43,637 bases of DNA from Gemmatimonadota bacterium (GTDB lineage Bacteria; JBHIER01; G020348925): assembly GCA_020348925.1 (NCBI GenBank), contig CP070758.1, forward strand, positions 1,135,139-1,178,775. The letters run 5' to 3'. The stretch's first letter is position 1. Each line of letters begins with the position of its first letter. Of this stretch, positions 12,343 through 35,915 are shown one piece after another. Below the pieces are notes generated by a model, which was not told where the DNA came from, ran no database searches, and saw only the letters and a list, made by a program, of their open reading frames with translations. The position numbers and the translations under genes were made by a program.

Positions 12343-12377
12343 AGGGAGTTCCACTGAAAATGATACAACAGTAAAAA

Positions 12378-15747: not shown

Positions 15748-18393
15748 TCAGAGCGAAAACCACCTGTTCAATTTGATCAAAAAAACGTTGTGCGGATGGA
15801 CGGCGAAGAGACCGTCCATGTCCCGCCGGAACTTAAAATCACCCATTGACAGATAATCGGTCCGAGACTGGGACCAGACCACATAGAGCACGGAACCCGG
15901 GCTGTACTCCCAGCGGATAACGAGGTTCGAATTGAAATCGCGGAAATTGAAATCCGGCAGGTCGAAACCGTAGTCGTCCGTACCGTCCCCATCCTCATCG
16001 ATATTGTAGTATTCGTCGTCGGAGTCGTAGTCAATCCGATCATCGGGGTAAAGGTCAAACCGATCCCGGTACGTGTCGGCCATGGGATCCGTTATCCGTT
16101 TGAACTCGGAATATTCTCCGGCGGAGATGAAGGGTGAGCCGTAATACTGGATCGTCAGATTGGGCTTGATGCAGTAATCCAGACGGAAGGTGAAGGACAC
16201 CGTCTTCTGATCGAGACTGCCGAAGATGTATCGCTCCTCAGCTCCCAAAGACTCGGTCGTGACGTACTGCATCTCCGTGTCGTACCACCACATGGAAGGA
16301 CTCAGGGTCAAACGCATGGCATTGCTGGGCCTGTAATAGAGGTTCAGCCAGCTCTCCTTATAATCCGAATACCCTTCACCTGCTATCTGCCGGTACGCTC
16401 CCGTATTAAGATAGTATTTCTTGCGGCTATCCGAAGACAGGCTCATGCTGTACTCCCAGGCTCCGGGCCACTTTGAGGCCGGGCCGCCGCGAAGCTCGGT
16501 ATTGGAGACGACTTCGCCCAAGCGGGTGACACTGGCATGAAGGTAATAGTTGTTTCGAAACGTTATACTGGTGTTCGTGTTGGCCATCGCATAGAGGAAA
16601 TTACCGCCGAAATCCCAATTGAGCCATTGATTCCCATTGACCGATAAACGGTTGAAGATGCTGAAGGGATTTCTGAGATAGTAGCCGACCCAGGTGAACT
16701 GGTTCACCTCATCAGCCCGGCGCATGTAGCCCAGATCATTGATCTCAAAACCCGGCGATCGCCAGGCCACTCCCGTCTGGCCGACGAACTTGTTGTTACT
16801 CGTTCTTTGAAGGCGAATCGAGCCGGCATATCCGCCCAAGGCTGTTCGGGTGGAATCGATGGATCGGTGATCATTATCCGGCCGTTGATAGTACCGGGCC
16901 GACGACATCTGAGCATCCAAAATAGCCTCCGCACTCCCCCGTATCGTGCTGGCCAGAACACTCCCTTCGAGCAGGTAATCCCTGTTATGAAAATAGTGCA
17001 GGTAATCGACACCACCGGCATAAGCCTGACTCCTCATAAAATCGAGATAGTCATCCTCAATTTTACGGTGCACTGCCGTCACCATGGCGCCGATCTGCGT
17101 GTTCCCGGCCCGGAAATCCTGTTTGAGGCGGCCGACGAAATAATTACTCACAGGTTCAACAGTCTCCTCCCGTCGCTGCCCGCTGTTATCGATCTCCGCT
17201 TTCTCCTTCTTGGTGACACTCTCCAACAGACCTATGGATAAACCGCTCCGTGTCTTGCCCGAGAGTTTGAAGGCTCCTAAGATATGGGTATTATCCGGTT
17301 GATCCGAATACTCCTCGTCAGCCAGGTCCGGTCCATAGACAGGACGACGTCCGATGCGGCGTGAGTAGAAGAGTTTATCGCTGGTAAAGTGACCACCCGT
17401 AATGGCCGGGGCCAACCGCAGATCGAGGATGTTGTTGCCTTCGATAAAAAAGGGCCGCTTCTCGCTGAAAAAAGTCTCAAATTCCGAGAGATTTACCTCT
17501 GAAGGGTCGGCCTCCACCTGGCCGAAGTCCGGATTGACGGTGAAGTCCAGGGTCAGGTCGGTCGTGACACCAATTTTCCCGTCCAAGCCCATATCCCCCA
17601 AGGTTCGGCTGCCATCGAGAAAGGGGTTGCCCTCGACCCTCTTGAAGTGTTCCGTTTTTCCCATAGTATAGGGCAGCAGTTCGACGCGCCGGCTCGGTTT
17701 GATGTCCCGGATCCCGCGCAGCTCACCGAATTTACTCACCCACCCCGTAACATCCTTCGGAATGCACTGCCACGTCGAACGTTCTTCCTCACGGAAGATG
17801 CGGCGCTGGACCTGGAGTCCCCAGGTCTGTTCCTTTTCACCGCTGAAGCGAAGCTGGCTCAGGGGAATCTTCATCTCGGCCGTCCAGCCCGCGTGGTCAA
17901 TCTGCGTGGCACCCTCCCAGATGGGATCCCAATTGCCGTCCCAATTGTTACCGTCGAGCGAAATGAATTCGTCACCGCGCGTGCCTGAAAGACTGAGCGT
18001 AAACGAAAAGGCAGTGCGGTTGTCATCATGGCTGTCGATATTCACCTCGACCCAATCTCCGGGGAACCAGTCCCGCCGGGCCAGCATGCTCGTCACGAGC
18101 GCCGGATCGTCGTGCGCCCGGAAGGCGAAATAGAGGGCATCATCGTCGTACAGGACCTTAAATTCCGTCTGTTGTGTCGGCGGCTCGCCGTCGGCCGGAT
18201 CACGCTGAATGAAGTCACCCGACCACTCCACCGCCTCCCAGGCCGGATCATCCAGGCGACCGTCGATAGACGGTGTATTGCCGTTGACCCGCCTCGTCTC
18301 ATACACCCGGGTCTCAATGGCCTCGTCGAACCGGGCAAACGACGAGCTGATCAGACCCAGCAGCACCACAAGAATGAGGGCAAGAGATTTCAT
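15748..18393 (-). CDS. DUF5916 protein: CBM9-like domain plus outer-membrane beta-barrel
   Basis: 881 residues. ATG 18393 follows GGAGGAGGAG with good spacing and opens a signal peptide (MKSLALILVVLLGLISSSFA); the TTG at 18411 is inside the ribosome binding region. Residues 40-210 form a CBM9-like beta-sandwich (PSIDGRLDDPAWEAVEW, DDDALYFAFRAHDDP, GDWVEVNIDSHDD). The signature of the DUF5916 family follows (VNPDFGQVEADPSEVNL and SEKRPFFIEGNNIL, near 285-325). The remaining 500 residues are alternating aromatic strands ending in RWFSL, as expected of a large outer-membrane barrel with a terminal aromatic. A D-rich stretch (DRIDYDSDDEYYNIDEDGD) may bind calcium. The family is common in envelope loci of FCB-group bacteria and Acidobacteria; its substrate is unknown. 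A paralogue is at 32266-34515. It is probably the last gene of the long minus-strand array. Confidence 0.92.
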   Translation of the reverse strand: MKSLALILVVLLGLISSSFARFDEAIETRVYETRRVNGNTPSIDGRLDDPAWEAVEWSGDFIQRDPADGEPPTQQTEFKVLYDDDALYFAFRAHDDPALVTSMLARRDWFPGDWVEVNIDSHDDNRTAFSFTLSLSGTRGDEFISLDGNNWDGNWDPIWEGATQIDHAGWTAEMKIPLSQLRFSGEKEQTWGLQVQRRIFREEERSTWQCIPKDVTGWVSKFGELRGIRDIKPSRRVELLPYTMGKTEHFKRVEGNPFLDGSRTLGDMGLDGKIGVTTDLTLDFTVNPDFGQVEADPSEVNLSEFETFFSEKRPFFIEGNNILDLRLAPAITGGHFTSDKLFYSRRIGRRPVYGPDLADEEYSDQPDNTHILGAFKLSGKTRSGLSIGLLESVTKKEKAEIDNSGQRREETVEPVSNYFVGRLKQDFRAGNTQIGAMVTAVHRKIEDDYLDFMRSQAYAGGVDYLHYFHNRDYLLEGSVLASTIRGSAEAILDAQMSSARYYQRPDNDHRSIDSTRTALGGYAGSIRLQRTSNNKFVGQTGVAWRSPGFEINDLGYMRRADEVNQFTWVGYYLRNPFSIFNRLSVNGNQWLNWDFGGNFLYAMANTNTSITFRNNYYLHASVTRLGEVVSNTELRGGPASKWPGAWEYSMSLSSDSRKKYYLNTGAYRQIAGEGYSDYKESWLNLYYRPSNAMRLTLSPSMWWYDTEMQYVTTESLGAEERYIFGSLDQKTVSFTFRLDYCIKPNLTIQYYGSPFISAGEYSEFKRITDPMADTYRDRFDLYPDDRIDYDSDDEYYNIDEDGDGTDDYGFDLPDFNFRDFNSNLVIRWEYSPGSVLYVVWSQSRTDYLSMGDFKFRRDMDGLFAVHPHNVFLIKLNRWFSL

Positions 18394-18420
18394 GACACGC
18401 TCCTCCTCCAAAAAGTCAAC

Positions 18421-18439
18421 TTTTTCAACTGTTGAAAAA
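18421..18439. promoter_or_regulatory. 9-bp inverted repeat in the leader of the DUF5916 gene
   Basis: TTTTTCAAC and GTTGAAAAA flank a single T, about 28 bp before ATG 18393 and just before the GGAGGAGGAG ribosome binding site. It could be an operator, or a hairpin affecting translation or transcription between the ankyrin-MBL gene and this one. Confidence 0.4.
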
Positions 18440-18498
18440 AACGCGCTGATGCGACGTATGCATTCTCAAAAAAAGTGTTCCTCCTTTCTTTTCGATGC

Positions 18499-20190
18499 TT
18501 AATCAACCTCTCCATTTCGGTAGTGAAATCTATCACCCCTATTCTCTGCGCATACGAACGTCGTGTTTGGAAATTCCTGGGCCGCTTTTTCGGCGTACTG
18601 CTTGTAGATGCTTTCATTGTTCCGGGCATGCATGGGAAACATGACGCGCGGTCGAAGTTTCTCAATCGTAGAGTTACAGATATGTCTAAAGCCGGATTCG
18701 ATGAAGGCAAGGTCGATGACCCCGTATTTTTCTGCGAGAGAGGCGATGTTCCCACTGTCCTTTTCCCGGAAATAATAGTCTCCGCCATGGTAGATGGTCA
18801 CCCCATCCACTTTTACCAGAAAGGCGCTCTCGTTTTCGAGCTCGGAGGCAATCCGTACGATCTCGATCCCGTCAACGGTTCGAATTTCCCTCTCCCCATC
18901 CATGAGCACATACGATCCGTCTTCGAAGGCCCTCCACCCGAAAACATATTGAATCCGATCCAAGTGTGATTCCCAGGTTAAAATAATATCGTCGAAATGA
19001 TCTTCATGGGCGTGGGAAGCAAATACGGTGACATCAAGGCCTTGGATCTCAGGAGGATGAATGCGGCCGTTGGCGAGGACAGGTTCGTCCGGTATTCTGC
19101 CGTATTCATAATAATCAAAAACAAGCAATTTGCTTTGCGTCTTCAAAGCCCAGCCGGAGTGACCCAGATACCAGATGATCACTTCTCCACTGCTCAGATC
19201 ATCCCTTAACAGAGATGCATAGCCGCAGTTCTCCTCTGGCTCACCGGTCGTACCGCCGTTGACCTTGAGAAGATCGGCAATACCGCAATGGCCATATTTC
19301 CCGGCATAATAGAGCGGGGTTCTGCCCGCATCATCTCTCGCGTTCACATCGACTCCTCTTTCGAGAAGACATTCCGTCACATCCTTGTATCCATCGATCG
19401 ATGCCCTGTGCAATGGGGTCATCCCATAATGAAGATCTTTCTCGGATACATCATCCACCTGTGAGAGAAGAAGGGTAACCGCGTCGATATCTCCACTCTC
19501 CACCGCCAATCGAAAAGCCGATCTCCCATCATGCATTCTCAAGTTTACATCCGCATTTTCTGAAAGGAGCAGCTCGACGGCCTTCACGTTTCCGCTCCCG
19601 GCAGCAAGGTGCAGGGGTGTCGCACCCCCTCTGTCATCCTGGACATTGAGGGCCGCACCCTTTTGAATCAACATCCGTGCCGTGTCTGTGTGTCCTGAAC
19701 GGACGGCCATGTGCAGGGGTGTCCTGCCACGAAACTGATTGGCATTGACGTCGACGCCCTTTTGGATGAGGATCTTCACGATTTCCGAGTGGCCCTGCGC
19801 CGCCGCCGAATGCAACGGCGTAACACCTCTTGGCGTTGCATCTTTTTTGACCAAGGCTCCCTCTTCAATGAGAAGGTTGACGATATCGATAAGTCCCCAA
19901 TATGATGCATAATTCAAAAGACTCGCCCCGTGAATATCCTTGGCATTGACATCCGCACCTTGTTCGATACAAAATCTTGCCACATCACCCCGGTTTCCCC
20001 GGATGGCACAATGCAGCGGGTATCTCCCTTCGGCGCCGGAGTTGTCATGCAACAAACTCGGATCTTCGCTCAACAGGGCCTTGACCGTTTCGAGATCTCC
20101 CCGCTCCGCCGCCTCGTGAATTTCGTGAGAGAATAACGCGGTTGTCAGAACACCCACAAGAAAACAGGCGGTTATTGTTCCTCTGATCAC
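18499..20190 (-). CDS. Exported ankyrin-repeat protein fused to an UlaG-like metallo-beta-lactamase-fold hydrolase
   Basis: 563 residues from a GTG at 20190, with AAGAGGAG 4 nt upstream. The signal peptide (MIRGTITACFLVGVLTTALFS) precedes about nine ankyrin repeats (about 22-325), many with TPLHxAA and GADVNA motifs. The C-terminal 230 residues form a metallo-beta-lactamase fold of the UlaG/metal-dependent hydrolase type: VIIWYLGHSGWALK, the metal motif SHAHEDHF (near 392-399), VTIYHGGDYYF (second His/Asp set) and MFPMHARN (terminal His). The likely chemistry is hydrolysis of a lactone, phosphodiester or similar bond on a ligand docked through the ankyrin stack, in the periplasm. It follows the PD40 propeller gene by 22 bp. 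Ankyrin-MBL fusion is unusual. A parallel ankyrin fusion to a serine hydrolase lies at 37464-39155. Confidence 0.9.
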   Translation of the reverse strand: MIRGTITACFLVGVLTTALFSHEIHEAAERGDLETVKALLSEDPSLLHDNSGAEGRYPLHCAIRGNRGDVARFCIEQGADVNAKDIHGASLLNYASYWGLIDIVNLLIEEGALVKKDATPRGVTPLHSAAAQGHSEIVKILIQKGVDVNANQFRGRTPLHMAVRSGHTDTARMLIQKGAALNVQDDRGGATPLHLAAGSGNVKAVELLLSENADVNLRMHDGRSAFRLAVESGDIDAVTLLLSQVDDVSEKDLHYGMTPLHRASIDGYKDVTECLLERGVDVNARDDAGRTPLYYAGKYGHCGIADLLKVNGGTTGEPEENCGYASLLRDDLSSGEVIIWYLGHSGWALKTQSKLLVFDYYEYGRIPDEPVLANGRIHPPEIQGLDVTVFASHAHEDHFDDIILTWESHLDRIQYVFGWRAFEDGSYVLMDGEREIRTVDGIEIVRIASELENESAFLVKVDGVTIYHGGDYYFREKDSGNIASLAEKYGVIDLAFIESGFRHICNSTIEKLRPRVMFPMHARNNESIYKQYAEKAAQEFPNTTFVCAENRGDRFHYRNGEVD

Positions 20191-20212
20191 AGTTCTCCTC
20201 TTGGCTTCGGTA

Positions 20213-21142: not shown

Positions 21143-21251
21143 AATTGAATCCTCATGCATTGGAAAACACTTGATGAAACTTGAAAACACAGCCCATCCA
21201 ACAGGCCGTATTAAATGAGCAAACAAATACCTCGACTCGGAAGATCTTTCA

Positions 21252-23144
21252 TCACCACTCCATTTGAATTTTGTACGTCATGAGCCTGTTGTCGTACATC
21301 GTGGGAATGATGAGCATATTTTCATCACGTATAAATTCAAGATCCGCACAATACTGTTTTGGGCCGGTAATATTGAGCAGTTCCATCTTTTGGCCGTCCA
21401 ACGAGACGAGGAAGACCCTGCCATTGAAGTCCGAAATGACATATTTCCCACTCGCATACATCTTCACTCCATCCATGACGGAACCGTTTCCCAAACTCAC
21501 CACGGTTCGAATGCTTTTGTCTGACAGGTCAACCGCCTTCAGGCAGCCATCACCCGTATTGCCCACGAGCAACACATTATTATCGATGCACAGACCGTTT
21601 GGGCTCTGAATTTCATCGTGCTGCAGCCAGAGTTCGAATTCGCCCCCTGCAAATTTGTAGATGACATTCTTCTGCACATCCGAGATGTACGCGTTCCCCG
21701 AATCATCGAATGCCACATCGTTTATGAATACGGGTTCAGGAACCGCATAGCGATGTACGATATGCCCCCTATCGATATCGATCTCAACCAGATTGCCTCT
21801 TTCGACCGCGTACAGTTTATCCTCATACAGACACAATCCTGTGGGACGGTCCAAGCCTGTGATCCATCGCAAGTCTTTCATTTCCCCACTCAAAGTGACC
21901 TTGGAAAGAAACTCGTCCCCATCATTGAAGTAGTTTGAAACATAAAGCACATCCCTTTTCTCGTCATATACGGCCGACTCCGGATACTTCAGCCCTTTTT
22001 TATACTCCCACAAGCTCGTGATCCCCTCGTGTTGGAAAATGGCATCCGCATCCCGAAACATGAAGCCCCATCCCCCGAACGACTCCCAAATCATAAGAAG
22101 CAGCTCATTGTCGCCCTTTCTGAGAGGCAGGTACACACCGTCGTTCAATCCTACGATTCCCAAAAATGATGGGTCTCTGGATGTATAGGCACTGTTCCCG
22201 GAAAATATGAGCTTTTTGTTAAGAAAAATAACAATAACATCACTGTATCCGAACTGATACTCCCGAATTTCATCTTTGTCGGAATGAATAGTCGTTCTTG
22301 CCCAGACGCAATCGGGTGCCCTGCCACTTCTTCCAACATAACGAGCGACATTAACCAGACCCGAAGGCTCGCATCGTACTCTCTGCCAGGTTAGATCCCT
22401 GAAACCTTGATCCTCCGGCGGACGTTCGAGATCAACTTCACTGGCCTTGAACCCTTGAGAAAGCTCCCATTCCGTGATCATACCCAAAGGCGTATGTTCC
22501 TCAAGTGGTGGATCAAAATGGAGCTCGTTGTCGATGGTGTACTTAAAATTGGAGAAATATGCATTACCGCCTCTCTGACCCATCAGACCGAGTGTGCCTT
22601 TGCTCGCTCCATGTTTGAGACGTGATATGACGAGCGAAGGTTGTTCTGCATTATCAAGAAATATCCGGGCCTGCGTTCCGGAGATCTCCATCTTCACGTG
22701 AACCCATTGTTGCGCAGGTAAGTCTGCATTCGCCGTATACCCATCCCCGTTGTATAACTGCCAGCATTCGACGCCATTGAAAACCGGCATGTACTGAAGC
22801 GCATCCGGATAGAGAGAGGCTCGGTGAGGACGAATATAGAACCGCTCATAATTCCCCGGTGATTGCATTCGAAAAATGATGCCGGGATATCCACGAACCT
22901 TATTGTCTTTTACGGCAATATCGACCTCGATGACACCGTTTTCGAAGACCACATCTTTTAAAACGACATATCCCGACAGACACGTTCTGTCCAGATATTC
23001 CACGATCTCACCGTTCTTCAAATCCCAACGATCGGACCCGAAATCGACGATGTCATTCTGCGATGAGACACTCAATATGAACGTCAATAGAGAGAGGACA
23101 GACAAGACAATCGTCTTCACAGGAATCGGCCTTTTGACGCTCAT
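21252..23144 (-). CDS. Exported LamG/DUF1080-like lectin plus SMP-30/NHL beta-propeller protein
   Basis: 630 residues. ATG 23144 with AGGAG 6 nt upstream precedes a signal peptide (VKTIVLSVLSLLTFILSVSSQ). Residues 40-205 form a concanavalin A/LamG-like sandwich resembling DUF1080 (GVIEVDIAVKDNKVRGYPGIIFRMQ, WVHVKMEISGTQARIFLDN, LGLMGQRGGNAYFSNFKY). A middle beta-domain (about 215-365) resembles a galactose-binding or sandwich module. Residues 380-630 are a six-bladed SMP-30/gluconolactonase or NHL-like propeller (YPESAVYDEKRDVLYVSNY, DRPTGLCLYEDKLYAVE, INDVAFDDSGNAYISD, SPNGLCIDNNVLLVGN). The combination suggests carbohydrate binding with either sugar-lactone hydrolysis or pure binding; catalytic metal ligands are not certain by eye. 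It lies between an acyl-CoA dehydrogenase gene and PD40 paralogue 1. Confidence 0.82.
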   Translation of the reverse strand: MSVKRPIPVKTIVLSVLSLLTFILSVSSQNDIVDFGSDRWDLKNGEIVEYLDRTCLSGYVVLKDVVFENGVIEVDIAVKDNKVRGYPGIIFRMQSPGNYERFYIRPHRASLYPDALQYMPVFNGVECWQLYNGDGYTANADLPAQQWVHVKMEISGTQARIFLDNAEQPSLVISRLKHGASKGTLGLMGQRGGNAYFSNFKYTIDNELHFDPPLEEHTPLGMITEWELSQGFKASEVDLERPPEDQGFRDLTWQRVRCEPSGLVNVARYVGRSGRAPDCVWARTTIHSDKDEIREYQFGYSDVIVIFLNKKLIFSGNSAYTSRDPSFLGIVGLNDGVYLPLRKGDNELLLMIWESFGGWGFMFRDADAIFQHEGITSLWEYKKGLKYPESAVYDEKRDVLYVSNYFNDGDEFLSKVTLSGEMKDLRWITGLDRPTGLCLYEDKLYAVERGNLVEIDIDRGHIVHRYAVPEPVFINDVAFDDSGNAYISDVQKNVIYKFAGGEFELWLQHDEIQSPNGLCIDNNVLLVGNTGDGCLKAVDLSDKSIRTVVSLGNGSVMDGVKMYASGKYVISDFNGRVFLVSLDGQKMELLNITGPKQYCADLEFIRDENMLIIPTMYDNRLMTYKIQMEW

Positions 23145-23213
23145 AGTATTCTCCTTTCCTATACCTCTAAAATCATTATACGGACACATGTTTCAAATTT
23201 CACGTATCAACAC

Positions 23214-24419
23214 TTAATACGATCGGGGCAGCTTCAGAACATATTCGGCGATTTGATTGAGAATCAAGGCATCACTGATCGGTGCCGTTTTGAGGAGACG
23301 GGCGGCCTCCCACAGATGGATAATGCCCTTCTCTTCGTCAAAACCTTTACCTCCAAAGGTATTGATCGCAGCATCTACCGCTTGAACAGCCAATCCGGCA
23401 GCAAGATATTTGGCTGCATTGGCGGATGATGCCACATCATTCGGATCCACATCAGTATCAAAACACCACGCCGACCGATGGATCATCAGGCGGACCGCTT
23501 CCTGCCGGATGGCAAGGTCGGCCAAGGGGTGTTGAATAGACTGGTATGTTCCAATGGGTGTCTCCTGGAAAACCTTGCGGTTTCTGGCATGTTCGCAGGC
23601 GAGATCCAGACAGTAGCGGCTCATTCCCAGACCCATGGCGGCGGCCAGCGTGCGCTCCGGGTTGAACATCCGGAACATCACTCTGGCACCATGATCCTCA
23701 TCACCAAGAATGTGTCCGATCGGAACGGACACGTCCTTCAACTTCAGAGAAAATTGGGTGAGCACGCCTTCGCCGTGTGAAGGCAGCGGGGTCCGTTCAA
23801 TCCCTTCGGACTGAGGATCAACAAGCAGCACCGAGATGCCGGCCGTCTTCGATAATCCCCGGCGATCGCACTCCTCGCGCGTCATTGTCCGGGCTATAAC
23901 CAGGATAGAGTCAGCAACATCGATCCCCGATATATAAATCTTCGAACCATTGACGATGAAACGATCACGAGATCTTTCGGCATATGTTTTCACGTTGAAT
24001 ACGTTGAAACCGGCCTCAGTTTCGGTCGAGGCTATGGCAAATTTCAGCTCGCCTCTGGCCAGGGGCGGCAGGATATCGCGCTTCACCGTCTCCGCCCCAA
24101 ATCGGGCAATTCCTGCCGCGGCCATGCTGTTCAATACAGGACCGAAACTCTGCAATCCTTGTGCGGCCAGCTCCTCCATGATTACAGTTGACGTAAGAAG
24201 GCCTCTGTTTGTGCCTCCGTACTCTTCCGGTATAAGACAGCCAAAAAAGCCGACATTTGCTAAAGCGGCCTGTATCTCTTCAAAAGCAGCTTTTGGAATT
24301 TCATTGGCCCGTAACGAAGCGTACCGATGGCGTATGTCCGCAAATGCTTCGCTAACTCTTTGCTTGAGGTTCACCAGGTCCTTGTTTTGAAATACATCAA
24401 ATACCATTGTCTTCTTCAC
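23214..24419 (-). CDS. Acyl-CoA dehydrogenase family protein
   Basis: 401 residues; start GTG 24419 with AGGTG 5 nt upstream (ATG 24407 is the alternative). The order is that of the family: N-terminal helices with GFFGCLIPEEYGGT (58-70), the beta-domain with the FAIASTETEAGFN substrate/FAD loop (127-139) and RFIVNGSKIYISG (153-165), then the C-terminal helices with NRKVFQETPIGTYQSIQHPLADL and INTFGGKGFDEEKG. The oxidised product would be an enoyl-CoA, with electrons passed to ETF. The usual MCAD-type Glu site near the end of the protein appears to be Ile (SDALILNQIAE), but Glu255 in FNPERT aligns with the catalytic Glu position of isovaleryl-CoA and long-chain dehydrogenases. It is cytosolic and oddly placed, alone among genes for exported proteins. 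Confidence 0.95.
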   Translation of the reverse strand: MKKTMVFDVFQNKDLVNLKQRVSEAFADIRHRYASLRANEIPKAAFEEIQAALANVGFFGCLIPEEYGGTNRGLLTSTVIMEELAAQGLQSFGPVLNSMAAAGIARFGAETVKRDILPPLARGELKFAIASTETEAGFNVFNVKTYAERSRDRFIVNGSKIYISGIDVADSILVIARTMTREECDRRGLSKTAGISVLLVDPQSEGIERTPLPSHGEGVLTQFSLKLKDVSVPIGHILGDEDHGARVMFRMFNPERTLAAAMGLGMSRYCLDLACEHARNRKVFQETPIGTYQSIQHPLADLAIRQEAVRLMIHRSAWCFDTDVDPNDVASSANAAKYLAAGLAVQAVDAAINTFGGKGFDEEKGIIHLWEAARLLKTAPISDALILNQIAEYVLKLPRSY

Positions 24420-24436
24420 TCTTTCACCTGTTTTTT

Positions 24437-25705: not shown

Positions 25706-25760
25706 CAATCGCTCCGCAGCGTGTCACTCCTAAAAAAGTCGAATGAAAGAACCATACAAC

Positions 25761-27263: not shown

Positions 27264-27273
27264 TTCTTCTCCT

Positions 27274-28284: not shown

Positions 28285-28295
28285 GACAAACTTCC

Positions 28296-29576
28296 CTATT
28301 TCAAGTCTTCGGGTTTGAGTGCTTCAATGATCCTGGCATCCACCCAGTAGATATCCCGGTTCCTGAGGTAAAAGAGGTATTTTCCATCGGGTGAAAGCGA
28401 AGCACAGATGTTACCTCCCGGCGTATTGATCCGCTGGCCCATATTGATCGTTTCACTCCAACGCCCGTCGGATCTTCGATAACAGATGAAAAGATCCGTG
28501 TGTTCCTCTCCCTCCGTGTCTCCGAGGATCAAGGAATCGAAAATGATGAAGCTCTCGTCCGGGGCTATGCATGGGTGGGCGCTGCCGACGGCCCGGTTCA
28601 CACCACCCCCGACTCTTTCAGGTTCACTGTATGATCCATTGCGATACGAAGACCTTACTATCCTGCCGTATTCAACGGACGGATCAAGCTGCGTCATATA
28701 AATCGTTCTATCCAGCGTGGTCGTAACATACATGCCGGGTCCGTGCCGTATCGCCTCCCCCCATATGTCTTCTTCTCTATCCATAAACCAGATCTCCGGC
28801 CCTCGCCCGAAGAACATCCTTTTGCCATCATAGGTGATGTGGGGTTCAAAAGCCCTGGGATATTTTTTACAGAAGGGTGCCACCTCCGGAGCCGTCCAGC
28901 CATCCTTCTCCCAACGGCTGACCAGAACTCCTTCCCCTCGGCGATTGAAGTACAACTCCTTACCGTCAGGGGACCAGGTGCAACAGAATTCGAAGCCGCC
29001 GCGTGTCGAGACAATGCCCGGGGCGAAAACTTTCGGAACGAAACCTGGAGGTCTTTGCCCCAAATATGCGCCATCCAGTCCGGTATTCTCTCCGGGGCGG
29101 TATTTCAAAATCTCCCTGGTCTCATTCCGGGCATCCTGAACAAACCCGTTCATCCTTTTCAGATTCATATCCGCATTCCAGTTCTCAGGATTCAACTCTA
29201 GAGCTTTCCGGTAATAGACCACGGCGCTGTCTTTGTCCCCGTTGAGCATGTACCCTTCACCGAGGCTGTCATACACATTCGCAGAATCTGGAAACAGCGC
29301 AACATTCATCTTAAAAACTTCGATGGCCTCTGAAACCTTGCCAGCCGATATAAACTTGTAACCTAAAGTATTAAACTCATTCTCGTCAAAAGAATACTCA
29401 GTCTGATTGTTTGAGCAAAGCTCGTCGAATGTTTTGATGGCGGCTTCCAGGCCCTCACGTTCGATGACGCACTCGATCAAATGTGCGGCCGATTGTATCG
29501 ACTCGTTTCCCTTCTGGGCAAAGATCGTTGCGACGAAAAGTATAGTACAAATCGAGATAATATTGAAAACGCTCAT
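28296..29576 (-). CDS. Exported TPR + PD40 beta-propeller protein, paralogue 4
   Basis: 426 residues from ATG 29576, chosen because it opens a signal peptide (MSVFNIISICTILFVATIFAQ); the frame reaches 29684 but adds a charged non-signal stretch. The ribosome binding site is weak. The TPR module (about 25-145) parallels that of paralogue 2: YSFDENEFNTLGYKFI, EAIEVFKMNVALFPDS, YDSLGEGYMLNGD, YYRKALELNPENWNAD. Then the family motif GAYLGQRPPG...VFAPGIVST, blades with WSPDGKELYFNR, ITYDGKRMFFG, IAPDESFIIFDS and LSPDGKYLFYL, and the end DIYWVDARIIEALKP. The two TPR-propeller proteins flank the 27274/25761 lipoprotein-hydrolase pair, consistent with duplication of a multi-gene unit. Confidence 0.9.
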   Translation of the reverse strand: MSVFNIISICTILFVATIFAQKGNESIQSAAHLIECVIEREGLEAAIKTFDELCSNNQTEYSFDENEFNTLGYKFISAGKVSEAIEVFKMNVALFPDSANVYDSLGEGYMLNGDKDSAVVYYRKALELNPENWNADMNLKRMNGFVQDARNETREILKYRPGENTGLDGAYLGQRPPGFVPKVFAPGIVSTRGGFEFCCTWSPDGKELYFNRRGEGVLVSRWEKDGWTAPEVAPFCKKYPRAFEPHITYDGKRMFFGRGPEIWFMDREEDIWGEAIRHGPGMYVTTTLDRTIYMTQLDPSVEYGRIVRSSYRNGSYSEPERVGGGVNRAVGSAHPCIAPDESFIIFDSLILGDTEGEEHTDLFICYRRSDGRWSETINMGQRINTPGGNICASLSPDGKYLFYLRNRDIYWVDARIIEALKPEDLK

Positions 29577-29694
29577 GACACATCCAGAATACCCAAATTC
29601 CCTCCTCCAACGTCCGAAAGAGCTCTTGCACTCGGTTCGTACTTTCCCTTTCACGTTCTCACACTTCTTCTGAAAGATCAACATACTGTGTTCA

Positions 29695-30933
29695 TCATAT
29701 CAAACGGCGCAGGGTGATGGTCACATGCATCATTGTGCCGTCGCGGGAGATGGTCAGGTGCAACCGCTCTCCCTCCTGCTGCAGCAGTTCGGTCACTTCA
29801 TCCCTATTATACTGGGTTGGGGAACGTCCGTTGATCTCGACGACGACATCACCCTTCTCCAATCCGGCTTCACTCCCAGGCGAATCGGGGACGATACGGT
29901 CGATGCGAAACGTACCATCGCCCATCCGTCTCAGAGCGAGGCCGGACATGTTGAACTCGAAGGGTTCGTTGAAACGGCTGTTGGGCTCCAGGATCATACG
30001 TCGCCGCCCATAATCAAAAATGACCAGAAACCGCTGAAGGGCGACACAACCGAGATTTCCTTCCCCTTCAATCTGAACGAGGTGCTCACTATCACTGAAG
30101 GCAGTGATAACATGATCAAGAGTATATTTCCCCAGGTGCAATGCCTGAACTCGACCGATATACCCCAACTCCTCGCCCAAAATACCCATGCCCAGGGAAT
30201 ATTCGATCCTTTTTTCGGGCAGAGTAATATCCTCGTGTCCCTTCACATTGAGGGAAAGAGCATGAGAAGCACCCAGATCGACCACAAGTTGGAGGGAAAC
30301 AGCTTTGCCTTCGGGTAAATCCGCAGTGGCCGAGATCGTGGGGGCGCCGTCGTGAAGCCAACCGGCTGGCAGTATCTCTCCACTTCCCGAAGAGTCGAAT
30401 TTTTCCGGCTCTGTAACCGTCAGAGTCATCTTGTCATAATCAAGTGTCACCACAAAATTGTTGAACAGCGATCCCCCGATGTATCCGTCCTCTCCCTCAA
30501 AGGCAACAGCTCGGATTGAGTCGTAAGGCATGACGATACAAGTTTGGTTCGTCAATTCGAGACCGGGAAATATCACCCCAACGCCGACGGCCAGGTCCGC
30601 CGGTACCGGCTCACTTCCACCGGCACCACCCACTCCAATTTTACTCATGTACTCCAAATCCATGTCGTCGATATGCGGACCGCCGTGGAGTATGACTCCT
30701 TCTGCTGTGAAACCGGTATCAACGCAGAGCCGCAACAACTTTCCCCCTATTTCGGCTTGGACAATGACGTGATGTCGATACAGTTCAAAGGGGACGGTCG
30801 CTTCGCCCTGCGCCTTCAACATGCTGTATCCACCGGGCGACGGAGCCTGAATAGCCCGATCTTGAGAGTTTACCGACACAAGACTCATCAGGAGTACTAC
30901 TGTTACCCAAAGGAATATTTTCTTCGATTTCAT
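29695..30933 (-). CDS. Exported retropepsin-like aspartyl protease homologue with PDZ domain, second site altered
   Basis: About 412 residues from ATG 30933 (AAGAGG only 3 nt upstream; ATG 30945 is an alternative), followed by a signal segment (SKKIFLWVTVVLLMSLVSV). The first lobe carries LLRLCVDTGFTAEGVIL, and the second carries LQLVVDLGASHALSL, where the expected DTG is DLG. The C-terminal PDZ domain is clear (FRIDRIVPDSPGSEAGLEKGDVVVEING). With one DTG intact and the other changed from Thr to Leu, activity may be reduced or the protein may bind peptides without cutting. A glycine-rich loop (GVGGAGGSEP) occupies the first lobe. It lies 43 bp downstream of a related protease gene at 30977. 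Confidence 0.85.
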   Translation of the reverse strand: MKSKKIFLWVTVVLLMSLVSVNSQDRAIQAPSPGGYSMLKAQGEATVPFELYRHHVIVQAEIGGKLLRLCVDTGFTAEGVILHGGPHIDDMDLEYMSKIGVGGAGGSEPVPADLAVGVGVIFPGLELTNQTCIVMPYDSIRAVAFEGEDGYIGGSLFNNFVVTLDYDKMTLTVTEPEKFDSSGSGEILPAGWLHDGAPTISATADLPEGKAVSLQLVVDLGASHALSLNVKGHEDITLPEKRIEYSLGMGILGEELGYIGRVQALHLGKYTLDHVITAFSDSEHLVQIEGEGNLGCVALQRFLVIFDYGRRRMILEPNSRFNEPFEFNMSGLALRRMGDGTFRIDRIVPDSPGSEAGLEKGDVVVEINGRSPTQYNRDEVTELLQQEGERLHLTISRDGTMMHVTITLRRLI

Positions 30934-30976
30934 GAACCTCTTCATTCCCAGTTTTTGTGATACTGGCTTATATACA

Positions 30977-32191
30977 TCACTTATCCTTTGGCACAAACTC
31001 CTCACTCCCATCATCATGCACAAAAGTCAATCCGATAACTATACCCTGGTCGTCTCTTTCGAATCGAATTCTGGGAAGCTTATTCATGGGCACCATTCCC
31101 CCGGTTAATTCAGGACGATAGAGATGATCATCATTTTCAACAAGCTTCATTTTTATGGTTCCATCTCTCTGAATATACAATGCACCATTCTCGAAGGTGA
31201 CGCTTCTCACTCCCCCGTATCGTCCACAGAATTGATGATCCTCAGTTCTCCGCTTTCCTTCCTTCGACGCCTTTTCCACGGGATGACTTTTCTCAAGTTT
31301 GATCAAGCTGTTTTTTTGATCAACGGTTATTGATAACTCTTTGAGTACGGGATACCCAATGGTTATGAAGTCTCCAGGTCTGTCTTCCAAGACGATGTCA
31401 GGGGATTCGAAAATGATGTCGGCCACCCGGATCTGGCCATCCAGTTGGGCCTTCCAGATCTTGAAGGAGGCCCCGATCATTCCCGCGCGGCCCATTTCTG
31501 TCGGCGGTGTCTTCAACTTTAACGTATTTTGGTGAGCAAGCGGGAAGGCAAAGGACGCCGGGCATCCTGTGTCGAGATGTGCCACTTTTTCGGTTCCGCC
31601 GATGTCGATGTGCACGCTCATCATTGAACCGAACGGAATCACATTTTCTGAATTGTGTTGAAGGTGCCCTCTATCAAATACAATCTTCTCCCCGGGATAG
31701 TCAATGGTTACGAGATAGTCTGAAAAAGGCTGCAGGCCCAGTATCCCGTCGACGGACAGCATGTCACCAAAGTCCAGCTTCACCATGGCTATATACGAAA
31801 GGTGAATGTCACCCAGAGAAACGCTCGGAACATTGACAATACTCGCCATGATGGGCTCTGTGCTTGCCGGACTGCTGACGCTCGTTTCTCCGATAACCTC
31901 GAGACCCAATATGGCTGCATATTGTGCGCTGATAGTACTCATCCCCGCACCCGTGTCAAAATCGAACCGATAAGGACCCTCGCCATTAATCTTTAACTCG
32001 ACGTTTGGCACCATCGTGCTGAGATCCATGGGGACGGTTGTTGTCTCATTCATCTTCTGGAGGGCAAAACAGTTCAATGAGAAGAGAAGAAGAATCCACG
32101 AAACAATACATATCGAATGACCTTTGGGAAAAATACTTCTCCCGTCTTTTTCGCTTCTCTTTTTCGTGATTGCAGATACAAGTTTTTCCAT
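30977..32191 (-). CDS. Exported retropepsin-like aspartyl protease with C-terminal beta-domain
   Basis: 404 residues. ATG 32191 has GGAG about 8 nt upstream; longer starts overlap the previous gene and weaken the signal. A charged N-region (about 28 residues) precedes a hydrophobic segment (ICIVSWILLLFSLNCFA). Two aspartyl protease lobes with intact triads follow: YRFDFDTGAGMSTIS (about 75) and VAHLDTGCPASFAFP (about 200). Between them is DGILGLQPFSDYLVTIDY. Instead of a PDZ domain the C-terminus (about 315-404) has a small beta-domain (FCGRYGGVRSVTFENGALYIQRDG, IVIGLTFVHDDGSEEF) like the DUF3471-type tail of serine hydrolases. Its partner at 29695 follows. Together with the barrel upstream, these look like an envelope proteolysis pair. 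Confidence 0.85.
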   Translation of the reverse strand: MEKLVSAITKKRSEKDGRSIFPKGHSICIVSWILLLFSLNCFALQKMNETTTVPMDLSTMVPNVELKINGEGPYRFDFDTGAGMSTISAQYAAILGLEVIGETSVSSPASTEPIMASIVNVPSVSLGDIHLSYIAMVKLDFGDMLSVDGILGLQPFSDYLVTIDYPGEKIVFDRGHLQHNSENVIPFGSMMSVHIDIGGTEKVAHLDTGCPASFAFPLAHQNTLKLKTPPTEMGRAGMIGASFKIWKAQLDGQIRVADIIFESPDIVLEDRPGDFITIGYPVLKELSITVDQKNSLIKLEKSHPVEKASKEGKRRTEDHQFCGRYGGVRSVTFENGALYIQRDGTIKMKLVENDDHLYRPELTGGMVPMNKLPRIRFERDDQGIVIGLTFVHDDGSEEFVPKDK

Positions 32192-32265
32192 GTTGATCTC
32201 TCCATAAAATTTGAATGCGTCTCTCATCCACCATCCTCTCGTATCATCTTCACATCGCAGCTCCA

Positions 32266-34515
32266 TCACATCACCCAGGCATAACTGAGTTTCATGAAGA
32301 ATGTCCTGTCGTTCTGAGTCAAATCGTACTCCTGACGTCCGTAATAATTGTCACTGTAGCCGACAAAGAAAACCGTAAACGGGTTTATTTTGTATGAGAA
32401 TAAAAACTGAGAGAAAAAGTGTTTGTATCTCGAATCAAGCTCAAAAGTATAGTTACCCACATTGTAATCGTAGTCGACATACTGGAGTATGGAACGAAAA
32501 AATGTACGCGTATTCACATGAAAGACGGCCGTGACCTGACTGATGTTGGCGGTATAGAGACGTCCCGAGTCAACAGACATGTGCTCGAAGGTGTGATCGA
32601 AATCGAGTCTGCAGTGGCGCCCCAGGTTCAGATACAGCGATGGGACCAGATTGATCCTACTGCCCCGGCGGGTATTGGCATAATCGATGCGATCACCGAA
32701 ATAGTACGCAATATGAAACCAGATGTTACTTTCAGGCCTGAATCCGAGGCATCCGTAGTACTCCACGAGATCGAACGCACGCCCACCATAGGCTTCCTGA
32801 AACATCCTGCCGCCAAAAGACCCGTGGGATTGCTTGATCCCTGCGAACTGCGCCCACAGCGCACCGTTCTTGAGAAGCAGGTCACTATTTGCTTTTTCAT
32901 AATAATTGAGTTCATTCCCCACCACGAAGCTGGACCACCAGCTGCCGGGCTCGCCGATCCAGGTATAATGCACACCCCCTTCAACGTTCCGAAATCCGAC
33001 CATGGGTATGAACCCCAGATCCGCACGAAAATCGGGGCCGACGTCATCGTAATCCAACCACCACCCCCAGTTTCGAGCCCTGTGATCGTACTCAAAGGCA
33101 AAAAAATGGTCCTTCAATTTCCCACTTCCCTGATCGAATTCAACAGCCGTTTCATCGGGGTACTGGGTATTCGATCCCAAAGCCTGAATCTGAACACGAT
33201 CACAATTTGTGAGGCGAATGTCCCCGTCAATTCCCACCAGACGGTTGTAATAATCACTCCCCTCACGATCGGTCGCCATCAGACCGAGGGTGTACTTTCT
33301 CCCCATGTCCCGTTTGTACCGGAACACACCTGACGTGTTTTTCTGGTCCAGGGAGGTCGATGATGATGATTGGCTGCCGGGAAAGATAAAATTGGTCACA
33401 TCATCCCGCACCAGGTAGGCACCGATGGTGTGCACGCCCTCCTTTCCGGTCAATTTCATGCCCCAATCCGGATCCCGCATCGTCCGGGTATATACAGCTC
33501 TCTTGAGGGTTGAGAAATAATCGGCACCCTCTGTGAAAAAAGGTCGCTTCTCCGGAAAGCTCAGGGCAAAGGGCTCGTTGATATCGAGCTGCATGGCATC
33601 GGCCTCGACTTGAGAGAAGTCCGGATTGATGGTACCATTGAGCGTCATGTTCGTTGTGACGCCCCACCGGCCCGAGAAACCTCCTTCGACGTCCTCATTC
33701 ATCGTCTCAAAGTTACCATGGGGCAATTCGGATCGTTCATCCGTTCGTCCACCAATGAGTGTCGGTACCAATTCGATATTCCGACCCGGGGTCACACCTT
33801 CGAATCCCTCTATTTTATAAGCCTGACACAGGGAGCAATCGTTACTGCGGTCATCCGGATTATTATTAATCCAATAGTCGTGAGCACGGGGGTACAAACG
33901 AGCGGCAACAAATCCCCACGTCTGCGGTCCCTCAATTCTCTGAAAGCGAATAGAGTTGAATGGGACCGATATTTCAGCGACCCATCCCCAATCGGTGATC
34001 TTACCGGCCGAGTTCCAGATGGCGTCCCAGCCGGTGTCGTCGATCTCAAATGCTCGGATGTAATCCATCTGCACCCCAAAGGGATTCACGCAAAAGTTGT
34101 AGGCCCTTCGCTCATCATTAAACGTATCGAATATGGCCACAACCCGGTCATCATCCCAGGCCCTGTCACGATCATTGATACGGGCCCGAATGCAGGACGG
34201 TTCGGGATCAAAACAGCGGAAGGCAATATACAGGTTTTTTTCTCCATACGTCAGGAGGACCTCCGTGCGAACCGGTGGAAGTACGTTCTCTCCCGGAGAG
34301 ACCTCATATTTCAGTTCCTGTACAAGAGCATTCGCCCAAGCTTGCTCGTCGAGCACGGCGTCAATCTTCATGCCAGACTCGGTCCTTGGAACTATAAAGG
34401 GATCTTCTGAAGTGCCCGCGTCAGAATATCCTAACTCACAAATCATGAAAATGAATAAAAATGCCATCGGAAGTATTATTTTTCTTGAAATGCAGATTCG
34501 TCCTCTGTCTCTCAT
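32266..34515 (-). CDS. DUF5916 protein: CBM9-like domain plus outer-membrane beta-barrel, paralogue
   Basis: 749 residues. ATG 34515 with AGGAG 5 nt upstream; signal sequence KIILPMAFLFIFMICELGYS after a basic N-region. CBM9-like domain about 35-215 (MKIDAVLDEQAWANAL, GEKNLYIAFRCFDPEP, DDRVVAIFDTFNDERRAYNF), then the DUF5916 signature (INPDFSQVEADAMQLDINEPF with FPEKRPFFTEGADYF, near 290-325), then a barrel of alternating strands ending in FMKLSYAWVM. Compared with the 15748 paralogue the barrel is shorter and sequence divergence is high, so they are not a recent duplication. It may act as a channel or anchor for a surface complex; that is an inference. It starts 31 bp after PD40 paralogue 5. 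Confidence 0.92.
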   Translation of the reverse strand: MRDRGRICISRKIILPMAFLFIFMICELGYSDAGTSEDPFIVPRTESGMKIDAVLDEQAWANALVQELKYEVSPGENVLPPVRTEVLLTYGEKNLYIAFRCFDPEPSCIRARINDRDRAWDDDRVVAIFDTFNDERRAYNFCVNPFGVQMDYIRAFEIDDTGWDAIWNSAGKITDWGWVAEISVPFNSIRFQRIEGPQTWGFVAARLYPRAHDYWINNNPDDRSNDCSLCQAYKIEGFEGVTPGRNIELVPTLIGGRTDERSELPHGNFETMNEDVEGGFSGRWGVTTNMTLNGTINPDFSQVEADAMQLDINEPFALSFPEKRPFFTEGADYFSTLKRAVYTRTMRDPDWGMKLTGKEGVHTIGAYLVRDDVTNFIFPGSQSSSSTSLDQKNTSGVFRYKRDMGRKYTLGLMATDREGSDYYNRLVGIDGDIRLTNCDRVQIQALGSNTQYPDETAVEFDQGSGKLKDHFFAFEYDHRARNWGWWLDYDDVGPDFRADLGFIPMVGFRNVEGGVHYTWIGEPGSWWSSFVVGNELNYYEKANSDLLLKNGALWAQFAGIKQSHGSFGGRMFQEAYGGRAFDLVEYYGCLGFRPESNIWFHIAYYFGDRIDYANTRRGSRINLVPSLYLNLGRHCRLDFDHTFEHMSVDSGRLYTANISQVTAVFHVNTRTFFRSILQYVDYDYNVGNYTFELDSRYKHFFSQFLFSYKINPFTVFFVGYSDNYYGRQEYDLTQNDRTFFMKLSYAWVM

Positions 34516-34546
34516 GTGTTCTCCTTTCTTAGAATATTGATCATTC

Positions 34547-35572
34547 CTATTTGTCATCAAGCCTGTTTTTCAAAACTTCAATAATTCCGGCGTCCACCCA
34601 AAACAAGGTTCCGTGACCATTTTGGGGGTGCCTATATAATTTCAAAAGCTCTCCGTATGTCTTATTTTGAAACAGACTCGATTCAAGAGGTCTGCCACTT
34701 GAGAAAAAAATATATGCACCGTCCGGAGAGATTCTGGGGCCAAAATCATGCGAGGCCGAATTCACAGACTCTCCCATATTGATCGGTTCGCTCCACAGTC
34801 CGTCATCCCCTTTGAAACTCGCATAGAGATCATTCCCACCGTACCCCCCCGGGCGGGTCGATTGAAACAGTAAACAACTCTCATCCGGTGCAATACACGG
34901 GCTGCTTTCATGACCCGTATTGATACCATTATTCAAACGTACGGGAACCGAATATGTCTTATCTTTGAATCGAGAAACATACAAAGTATCATTTACCTCA
35001 AAGTACATCGAGCCGTGGGACGACACGGAGACATCCCAGACATCACGCCTGTCGTTGATTGCATGGCCGAGGTTCACCGGTTCAGTCCACGAGCGACCGC
35101 TTTTCTCCACGTACCAGATATCAAAATCTTCCCGTGATTCGGTTCTATCCCTTACAGGTCTTTTGGAACAAAAATAGAGCCTTTTCCCATCAGGAGAAAA
35201 AGAGGGGGATGTATCCTGATACTTTCCTGAGAATGGAGCAACCTCCGGTTCTGACCAGATACCATGATCCCTCTTGAGACGGATTATCGTATAGTACCAT
35301 CTCTTATCCGAGGTGACGTAAAACATCTCATTGCCGTCGGGAGAAATTGTGAGTCTCAATTCATGAAATCCATGGGAAATGATACCAGGTCCAAACACTT
35401 CAGGTATCGGTCCCGGTGGCTTCTGTCCCAAATAATCGCCCTTGAGGAGGGGCCAATCTGTTGAACCGCAATGATTACTACCACCGAAGAAGAGGAACAT
35501 CGAGATCACTACTAAGATGAAACGTGACCACACACAACGCTTGAATGACATGACAACTTTAAACATCTTCAT
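34547..35572 (-). CDS. PD40/TolB-like beta-propeller exported protein, paralogue 5
   Basis: 341 residues from ATG 35572; this start overlaps the PAS gene by 14 bp, while ATG 35551 (MSFKRCVWSRF) would also give a good signal peptide. The hydrophobic segment FILVVISMFLFFGGSNHC may end in a Cys, but the lipobox is atypical. The entry motif WPLLKGDYLGQKPPG...VFGPGIIS has Gly for the usual Ala. Blades show ISPDGNEMFYVTS, FSPDGKRLYFCSKRPV, VSSHGSMYFE, IAPDESCLLFQSTRPGGYGGNDLY and ISPDGAYIFFSS. The inserted segment with RHPQNGHG precedes the end LFWVDAGIIEVLK, grouping it with paralogue 3. The DUF5916 barrel gene follows. Confidence 0.9.
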   Translation of the reverse strand: MKMFKVVMSFKRCVWSRFILVVISMFLFFGGSNHCGSTDWPLLKGDYLGQKPPGPIPEVFGPGIISHGFHELRLTISPDGNEMFYVTSDKRWYYTIIRLKRDHGIWSEPEVAPFSGKYQDTSPSFSPDGKRLYFCSKRPVRDRTESREDFDIWYVEKSGRSWTEPVNLGHAINDRRDVWDVSVSSHGSMYFEVNDTLYVSRFKDKTYSVPVRLNNGINTGHESSPCIAPDESCLLFQSTRPGGYGGNDLYASFKGDDGLWSEPINMGESVNSASHDFGPRISPDGAYIFFSSGRPLESSLFQNKTYGELLKLYRHPQNGHGTLFWVDAGIIEVLKNRLDDK

Positions 35573-35915
35573 CCAACGGAGTATTCTTCACCGACGGTTC
35601 ATACCGCTCATAATAGCCGACCAGGTGACCGTTGGCATCCCGGATGGCCCGCATGAAGATGCGATGCTTCTCATTGTCGGTAATGAGCCGTTCCTCTTCC
35701 CCTCTGTGAAAAGCATCGAAGACCTCGTGGATTGTTTGCCTGGACTGTTCATTGTGACAATGAAAAATTGAACGACCGATCAAGGCGACCCCTTCCTCGT
35801 AGTGACGCTGAGCGGCCTTATTCATGTATCGAATTATGTGATCCGTGTCGACGAAGACCAGGGGATCCTTGAGACTGTCCAGAATGGCGGCCATGAGATG
35901 TACATGAATTGTCAT
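35559..35915 (-). CDS. Single-domain PAS protein
   Basis: 118 residues, ATG 35915 with AAAGGG about 6 nt upstream. A whole PAS fold is visible: ILDSLKDPLVFVDTDHIIRYMNKAA at the start, GRSIFHCHNEQSRQTIHEVFDAF in the middle, and ERLITDNEKHRIFMRAIRDANGHLVGYYERYEP as the core beta-sheet. The HCHNEQS element resembles the PAS domain associated with DUF438. No output domain (kinase, DNA binding, cyclase) is attached, so it would act as a small cytosolic sensor or interact with a partner. It overlaps PD40 paralogue 5 and is the first gene of the long minus-strand array, making it a possible regulator of that array. Confidence 0.88.
   Translation of the reverse strand: MTIHVHLMAAILDSLKDPLVFVDTDHIIRYMNKAAQRHYEEGVALIGRSIFHCHNEQSRQTIHEVFDAFHRGEEERLITDNEKHRIFMRAIRDANGHLVGYYERYEPSVKNTPLDEDV

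What the first reader, a model, noticed from the sequence alone, without database searches (positions are those of the whole stretch)
15748..35915. A 20-kb colinear array of genes for exported proteins: propellers, aspartyl proteases, serine and metallo-hydrolases, DUF5916 barrels
Fourteen consecutive minus-strand genes with mostly 10-120 bp gaps; only the PAS protein and an acyl-CoA dehydrogenase appear cytosolic. The mix (five PD40 propellers, two outer-membrane barrels, two aspartyl proteases, a class C serine hydrolase, an ankyrin-MBL) does not match any named operon I know and reads as an envelope processing or sensing module. Seen: order, motifs, signals. Inferred: a joint function.
Basis: partly seen in the sequence, partly recalled or inferred. 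Interest (0 to 1): 0.8.

Follow-up and report, generated by a model that had tools for sequence, protein, structure and literature searches.

The report
Exported propeller, hydrolase and barrel array
A real run of 14 genes read in one direction makes mostly exported proteins; it is a local version of propeller-gene arrays scattered across several bacterial phyla, in which propellers, hydrolases and ankyrin or TPR adaptor domains are shuffled and fused, which hints at a shared cell-envelope job that nobody has tested.

Summary
Fourteen consecutive minus-strand genes (15748-35915) have gaps of 87 bp or less, four of them overlaps, and 11-12 of 14 look exported. The domain calls are right: five PD40 propellers, two CBM9-DUF5916 barrels, two retropepsin-like proteases, a class C serine hydrolase, an ankyrin-MBL, an SGL propeller, an acyl-CoA dehydrogenase and a PAS protein. 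It is the longest operon-like run in 524 kb of this genome inspected; the second longest is another DUF5916 + PD40 array.

The joint-function reading is partly supported. The gene order is not conserved elsewhere. In ten complete genomes of other phyla, loci of the same propeller family ('YLGQxPPG') are enriched for exported ankyrin domains, class C hydrolases and a TPR module, but not for DUF5916, aspartyl proteases, the dehydrogenase or the SGL protein. The parts are also fused to one another in many combinations. I read it as an envelope set in which non-catalytic propellers and Ank/TPR adaptors dock or restrain exported hydrolases, with DUF5916 as outer-membrane barrel. Co-transcription, binding and substrates are inferred, not shown. 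A limited literature search found no named operon that it matches.

The parts
35559..35915 (-). Single PAS domain protein (PAS_10), 118 aa, cytosolic; first gene of the run
   Evidence: Pfam PF13596 3.9e-11; no homologue found near PD40 genes in the 80 related loci
34547..35572 (-). YLGQxPPG-type PD40 propeller, 341 aa, exported
   Evidence: Pfam PD40 1.5e-21; AlphaFold pLDDT 92.6, fifteen main strands read as 5 blades of 3
32266..34560 (-). CBM9-like domain + DUF5916 outer-membrane barrel (short type), 764 aa; overlaps the propeller gene by 14 bp
   Evidence: PF19313 1.1e-14, PF06452; model with many long strands, pLDDT 61; 60% paralogue in second array
30977..32269 (-). Exported retropepsin-like aspartyl protease, single chain with two DTG motifs (residues 105, 233)
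   Evidence: PF13650 1.3e-17; motifs
29695..31023 (-). Exported retropepsin-like protease + PDZ; first motif DTG (102), second DLG (249)
   Evidence: PF13650 8.4e-6, PDZ_6 1.2e-11; motifs
28296..29684 (-). TPR module + YLGQ PD40 propeller
   Evidence: PF07676, TPR_2; sister of 24437
27274..28284 (-). YLGQ PD40 propeller with lipobox-like signal (LGGC)
   Evidence: PF07676 7.8e-14
25761..27263 (-). Exported class C beta-lactamase-fold serine hydrolase + DUF3471; SVTK, YSN, HHGG motifs present
   Evidence: PF00144 6.7e-61, PF11954; motifs
24437..25708 (-). TPR module + YLGQ PD40 propeller
   Evidence: PF07676 8.6e-15; alignment A1
23214..24419 (-). Acyl-CoA dehydrogenase, cytosolic
   Evidence: PF00441 6.2e-29; no NCBIfam equivalog cut-off reached
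21252..23189 (-). Exported protein with 3-keto-disaccharide hydrolase-like domain (below cut-off) + SGL/NHL propeller
   Evidence: PF08450 1e-7, PF06439 9e-5; relatives in two Aminicenantes YLGQ loci, L041 and L061
20213..21226 (-). YLGQ PD40 propeller, probable lipoprotein (FLSC)
   Evidence: PF07676 8.3e-18
18499..20190 (-). Exported ankyrin-repeat domain + metallo-beta-lactamase fold (HAHEDH)
   Evidence: Ank 1.6e-60, Lactamase_B_3 1.2e-9; motif
15748..18411 (-). CBM9-like + DUF5916 outer-membrane barrel (long type), 887 aa; last gene of the run
   Evidence: PF19313 2e-75
37464..39215 (-). Outside the run, related: exported ankyrin + class C serine hydrolase fusion
   Evidence: Ank 1.3e-37, PF00144 4.3e-30
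11125..12381 (-). Outside the run, related: third exported retropepsin-like protease + PDZ (two DTG)
   Evidence: PF13650 1.5e-14, PDZ 3.2e-11; motifs

Best explanation
The block is one long transcription unit, or a few, for a cell-envelope set. The five 'YLGQ' propellers are non-catalytic interaction modules, some lipid-anchored, that with swap-in ankyrin and TPR adaptor domains dock and regulate exported hydrolases of the class C (DD-peptidase-like), metallo-beta-lactamase, esterase and retropepsin types. The DUF5916 proteins supply an outer-membrane barrel with a sugar-binding-like front domain. The likely net effect is controlled hydrolysis of wall, peptide or ester material at the envelope. 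Shown here: anatomy, export signals (heuristic), catalytic motifs, propeller fold (predicted), paralogy, neighbourhood enrichment, domain fusions. Inferred: co-transcription, physical docking, barrel role, substrate.
For: Operon-like spacing with overlaps and 11-12 of 14 export-like; longest such run seen in 524 kb of the genome, second longest being the other DUF5916+PD40 array. 11 YLGQ propellers in the 5.04 Mb genome, 5 in this run and 3 in the second array. In ten complete genomes of other phyla, 35 YLGQ loci versus 38 random loci: exported ankyrin 12 v 0 (p 4.5e-5), class C hydrolase 9 v 1 (p 0.005), TPR module 9 v 2 (p 0.016), MacB-type permease 12 v 5 (p 0.03) (not corrected for 20 classes). 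Fusions: 16 ANK-PD40, 1 PD40-ANK, 1 PD40-MBL, ANK-MBL in three other genomes, 1 class C-ANK, 5 esterase-TPR, 3 class C-TPR, TPR-PD40 in L041 besides the two in the window, 1 PD40-TPR. Propeller model pLDDT 92.6. The closest named families are outer-membrane or periplasmic proteins (PorE, CHU_0125, TolB), and CHU_0125 is needed for outer-membrane integrity (PMC5891637). Precedent for an exported ankyrin binding and inhibiting wall peptidases: Bd3460 (PMC4686830).
Against: Gene order is not conserved; DUF5916, aspartyl protease, SGL and acyl-CoA dehydrogenase are not enriched near YLGQ propellers in other phyla, and the DUF5916-PD40 proximity is not significant in the ten genomes without the window's own (1 seen, 0.35 expected within 3 kb). 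Much of the ankyrin enrichment is the ANK-PD40 fusion itself, so it is not an independent neighbour. Two cytosolic genes sit in the run. No expression data; no binding evidence. Ank and TPR are promiscuous domains, so their fusions are weak evidence of shared function.
Confidence: 0.4

Rival explanations
1. No joint function: a lineage-specific accumulation of exported paralogues and unrelated exported genes behind one promoter, in a genome rich in exported proteins; only the sub-pairs (propeller with ankyrin, class C hydrolase or TPR) mean anything.
For: No conservation of the whole order; several members not enriched elsewhere; other regions of the genome are 35% export-like; YLGQ genes occur in tandem clusters in general (13 of 44 successive pairs within 5 kb against 0.4 expected), so clustering can arise by duplication.
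Against: The propellers of the run are not recent tandem copies (about 2-2.8 changes per column apart, except the TPR pair 24437/28296 at 1.5) and the nearest relatives of most are in other genomes and phyla, so diverged genes have been kept together; a second array repeats DUF5916 + propellers.
Confidence: 0.33
2. A nutrient-acquisition locus: DUF5916 barrels with CBM9-like fronts take the place of a SusC-type importer, and the hydrolases and propellers bind and trim an oligosaccharide or peptide for uptake, the acyl-CoA dehydrogenase handling a product.
For: CBM9-like domain on both barrels; a putative carbohydrate-binding protein, 4jpq, is among the fold matches of the barrel model (TM 0.59 by target); the propeller has weak fold similarity to GH43 and sialidase (TM about 0.5 or less); a related same-strand group in the genome (L213) holds a TonB-dependent receptor with M28 peptidases.
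Against: No glycoside hydrolase or polysaccharide lyase family above its cut-off in the run and no TonB-dependent receptor; conserved propeller residues look structural rather than catalytic.
Confidence: 0.15
3. A self-protection or wall-remodelling set like Bdellovibrio Bd3460/Bd3459: the ankyrin parts sterically inhibit class C-type wall peptidases until needed.
For: Bd3460 is an exported ankyrin protein that binds and inhibits two DD-endopeptidases (PMC4686830); ankyrin is fused to class C hydrolases at 37464 and in L053.
Against: Bd3460 is a separate subunit, here the ankyrin is fused in cis; class C family members need not act on peptidoglycan; ankyrin is more often fused to the propeller.
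Confidence: 0.08

Closest known systems
CHU_0125 / PorE-type outer-membrane lipoproteins (TPR-PD40-OmpA)
   Same: PD40 propeller, in two window genes preceded by a TPR module; exported; best NCBIfam matches
   Different: No OmpA/peptidoglycan-binding domain; scores far below the curated cut-offs (106 v 620; 103 v 600 bits)
TolB of the Tol-Pal system
   Same: Exported PD40 propeller; top Foldseek matches
   Different: Score 23-34 against a cut-off of 343 bits; TM 0.47 or less; main strands suggest five blades; no Tol-Pal genes in the run
Bd3460/Bd3459 ankyrin-endopeptidase pair of Bdellovibrio (PMC4686830)
   Same: Exported ankyrin repeat together with an exported hydrolase of the penicillin-recognising kind
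   Different: Here in one chain, or fused to MBL or propellers; inhibition untested
Polysaccharide utilisation (Sus-type) loci
   Same: Outer-membrane barrels with exported binding proteins and hydrolases in one operon
   Different: No SusC/SusD, no glycoside hydrolases or lyases; DUF5916 is a different barrel family

Membership tests
PorE / CHU_0125 family | OmpA_C-like domain after TPR and PD40 | tested here: not met
   No OmpA match in any of the 14 proteins
PorE / CHU_0125 family | NCBIfam curated score (600-620 bits) | tested here: not met
   62-115 bits for 20213 and 34547
TolB | NCBIfam TIGR02800 cut-off (343 bits) | tested here: not met
   23-34 bits
DUF5916 barrel family (PF19313) | Pfam gathering score and CBM9-like N-terminal domain | tested here: met
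   255 and 54.5 bits v 22.6; PF06452 in both
Class C beta-lactamase-fold serine hydrolases (PF00144) | SxxK, YxN and HxG-type motifs | tested here: met
   SVTK, YSN, HHGG in 25761; score 207 bits
True class C beta-lactamase (AmpC) | NCBIfam class C cut-off | tested here: not met
   122 bits v 415
Retropepsin-like aspartyl protease (PF13650) | Two catalytic Asp-Thr/Ser-Gly motifs | tested here: inconclusive
   30977 has DTG twice; 29695 has DTG and DLG
Sus-type polysaccharide utilisation locus | SusC/SusD pair and carbohydrate-active enzymes | tested here: not met
   None above cut-off among the 14 Pfam annotations
Bd3460-type ankyrin inhibitor | Binding and inhibition of a cognate wall peptidase | not testable with these tools
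   Needs biochemistry
Single operon | Co-transcription | not testable with these tools
   Spacing and overlaps only; promoter and terminator scans gave little more than shuffles

The most novel reading that the evidence does not exclude
YLGQ-propeller arrays are an undescribed, widespread class of envelope regulators found in Aminicenantes, Acidobacteriota, Gemmatimonadota, Zixibacteria, Bacteroidota and others: diversified propellers with interchangeable ankyrin/TPR adaptors, each paired with an exported hydrolase, working as a combinatorial system that targets or restrains hydrolases at the envelope, with DUF5916 as outer-membrane partner.
Probability: 0.22. Interest if true: 0.75.

Novelty: new variant of a known kind. 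Interest (0 to 1): 0.42.

Why it matters
PD40 propellers and DUF5916 barrels are abundant in uncultured phyla but almost uncharacterised; no paper in the held library names DUF5916. A recurring link between these propellers, exported ankyrins and class C hydrolases, with fusions, gives testable pairs for binding experiments and a way to annotate many 'WD40-like' genes. If the docking idea holds, it would describe a modular way of controlling envelope hydrolases.

Tried and rejected
LytTR/LytS two-component systems sit directly before propeller arrays in MAG PL23a_bin.125 and Bacteroidota loci, but the link is not general: in ten complete genomes the response-regulator class is not enriched (4/35 v 7/38) and the kinase is 2 v 0. 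Conserved DUF5916-PD40 proximity: significant with the window's genome included (3 of 65 within 3 kb, 0.43 expected, p 0.009), not without it, though direct neighbours do occur in Gemmatimonadota (L050/L137, one locus), Bacteroidota (L084, L106) and three times in G064. Recent tandem duplication of the propellers: rejected except possibly for 24437/28296. The propellers as glycoside hydrolases: only weak fold similarity, conserved residues look structural. A DUF5916 structural homologue: model confidence 61, all matches generic barrels; the weak sequence match to 6r2q chain B (E 0.012) was not followed. PAS and acyl-CoA dehydrogenase as conserved members: no homologue near propellers in the 80 loci.

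Full report
Observation. The window holds 14 consecutive minus-strand ORFs from 35915 down to 15748. Junction gaps run from -47 to +87 bp. The run is bounded by a 185-bp gap upstream (to a 4Fe-4S protein at 36101) and 636 bp downstream (to YbjQ, ending at 15111). With the same gene caller it is the longest co-directional run (gaps up to 100 bp) in the window plus 480 kb of other stretches of this genome; the next, 10 genes and cut by the end of the stretch, is another DUF5916+PD40 array at 2.887-2.902 Mb. Those stretches were mostly chosen for holding family members, so this is not a random sample.

Content. Catalytic motifs of the class C enzyme (SVTK, YSN, HHGG), the MBL (HAHEDH) and the first protease (DTG twice) are intact; the second protease reads DTG and DLG. 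A simple hydrophobicity rule finds export-like N-termini in 11 of 14 against 35% in other regions of this genome (binomial p about 1e-3, my arithmetic); with 28296 accepted by eye it is 12 of 14 (p 1.5e-4).

The propellers are one family. All five share a 'YLGQxPPG..P..FAPGI.S' stretch before the propeller and a 'YWVDA..I' stretch near the end. AlphaFold gives a confident model (pLDDT 92.6) whose fifteen main strands I read as five blades of three; solved folds match only loosely (TolB, S9 peptidase propellers, GH43, sialidase, TM about 0.5 or less). The nearest named families are PorE and CHU_0125, far below their cut-offs. The genome has 11 of them and they are old: the window copies lie 2-2.8 changes per column apart, except the TPR pair at 1.5, and the nearest relatives of the three I could list besides that pair are in Aminicenantes, Acidobacteria, Zixibacteria and MAG PL23a_bin.125.

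Elsewhere. The genome is the only one of its phylum held, so close synteny cannot be tested. A scan found YLGQ propellers in Aminicenantes, Acidobacteriota, Gemmatimonadota, Zixibacteria, Latescibacterota, Bacteroidota and others. They occur in tandem clusters: 13 of 44 successive pairs within 5 kb against 0.4 expected in eleven complete genomes, the window's included; MAG PL23a_bin.125 has 14 in about 18 kb with one DUF5916 and one esterase. No locus repeats the window's order. Some echo it: an Aminicenantes locus (L041) has propellers, a class C hydrolase, the SGL protein (44%), a propeller-MBL fusion and esterase-TPR; L061 has propellers, the SGL protein and DUF5916.

Test against chance. 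In ten complete genomes of other phyla I compared 35 stretches around YLGQ propellers with 38 random stretches. Ankyrin (12 v 0), class C hydrolase (9 v 1), TPR module (9 v 2) and MacB-type permease (12 v 5) are enriched; DUF5916, aspartyl protease, SGL, acyl-CoA dehydrogenase and LytTR are not. The p-values are not corrected for the 20 classes, under which only ankyrin clearly survives and the others are suggestive; the ankyrin signal is mostly ankyrin-propeller fusions. DUF5916 lies within 3 kb of a propeller more than expected only if the window's genome is counted.

Fusions. Across non-redundant ORFs of the fetched loci: ANK-PD40 16, PD40-ANK 1, PD40-MBL 1, ANK-MBL in three other genomes plus the window, class C-ANK 1 (and ANK-class C in the window), TPR-PD40 in L041 plus the two window genes, PD40-TPR 1, esterase-TPR 5, class C-TPR 3. 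Two adaptor types are thus traded between propellers and hydrolases. Ank and TPR are promiscuous, so this is suggestive, not proof of function.

Mechanism. I think the propellers and adaptors dock and control exported hydrolases at the envelope, with DUF5916 as outer-membrane barrel (confidence 0.4). Precedents: Bd3460, an exported ankyrin that inhibits DD-endopeptidases (PMC4686830), and CHU_0125, a TPR-PD40-OmpA lipoprotein needed for outer-membrane integrity (PMC5891637). The chief rival is that the run has no joint function beyond a shared promoter (0.33). An uptake locus is possible but lacks glycan enzymes and a TonB receptor.

Verdict. Observation confirmed; interpretation partly supported. 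The parts belong to known families, the arrangement and the propeller-centred mosaic appear undescribed within the limits of the literature held, and the function is open.

Noticed in passing
L125:6924-L126:4505 (G064 contig 159, MAG PL23a_bin.125): Fourteen YLGQ-PD40 genes, one DUF5916 and one esterase in about 18 kb, behind a LytTR response regulator and a PF06580 histidine kinase; the genome has 46 copies of the family.
   Followed up: partly
window 37464-39215; L053:3346-5019: Exported ankyrin repeats fused to a class C serine hydrolase, with the two domains reported in opposite order in the two genomes.
   Followed up: partly
L041:9995-11797: YLGQ-PD40 propeller fused to a metallo-beta-lactamase fold domain in an Aminicenantes MAG.
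   Followed up: no
L024:4641-20000 (2.887-2.902 Mb of the window's genome): Second array: DUF5916 (60% identical to 32266), three YLGQ propellers, FG-GAP proteins with dockerin-like ends and an S9 peptidase, next to divergent PAS histidine kinase genes.
   Followed up: yes
L213:1-17984 (612-630 kb of the window's genome): Another same-strand group: propeller, TonB-dependent receptor, M28 peptidases, class C hydrolase, retropepsin-PDZ 47% identical to 29695, MacB permease and ABC ATPase.
   Followed up: partly
window 29695-31023: Second catalytic motif of this retropepsin-like protein reads DLG instead of DTG.
   Followed up: no
window 13479-14579 and 41705-42691: Two SpoIIE-type phosphatases flank the region on either side of the run.
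   Followed up: no
L030:3032-18045 (upstream of the window): Four genes starting with near-identical Ser/Thr kinase sequence (IGxxISHYxILxKLGEGGMGVVYKA), three of them consecutive.
   Followed up: no
L094 (CP070751.1): Record titled 'Thermoplasmata archaeon', 5.16 Mb, carries 14 YLGQ propellers and DUF5916 genes like the bacterial genomes; the label may be wrong.
   Followed up: no
L125:2748-5675, L128:886-3818, L039:13797-17359: PadR regulator + MacB/FtsX-type permease pairs repeatedly close to YLGQ propeller clusters.
   Followed up: partly
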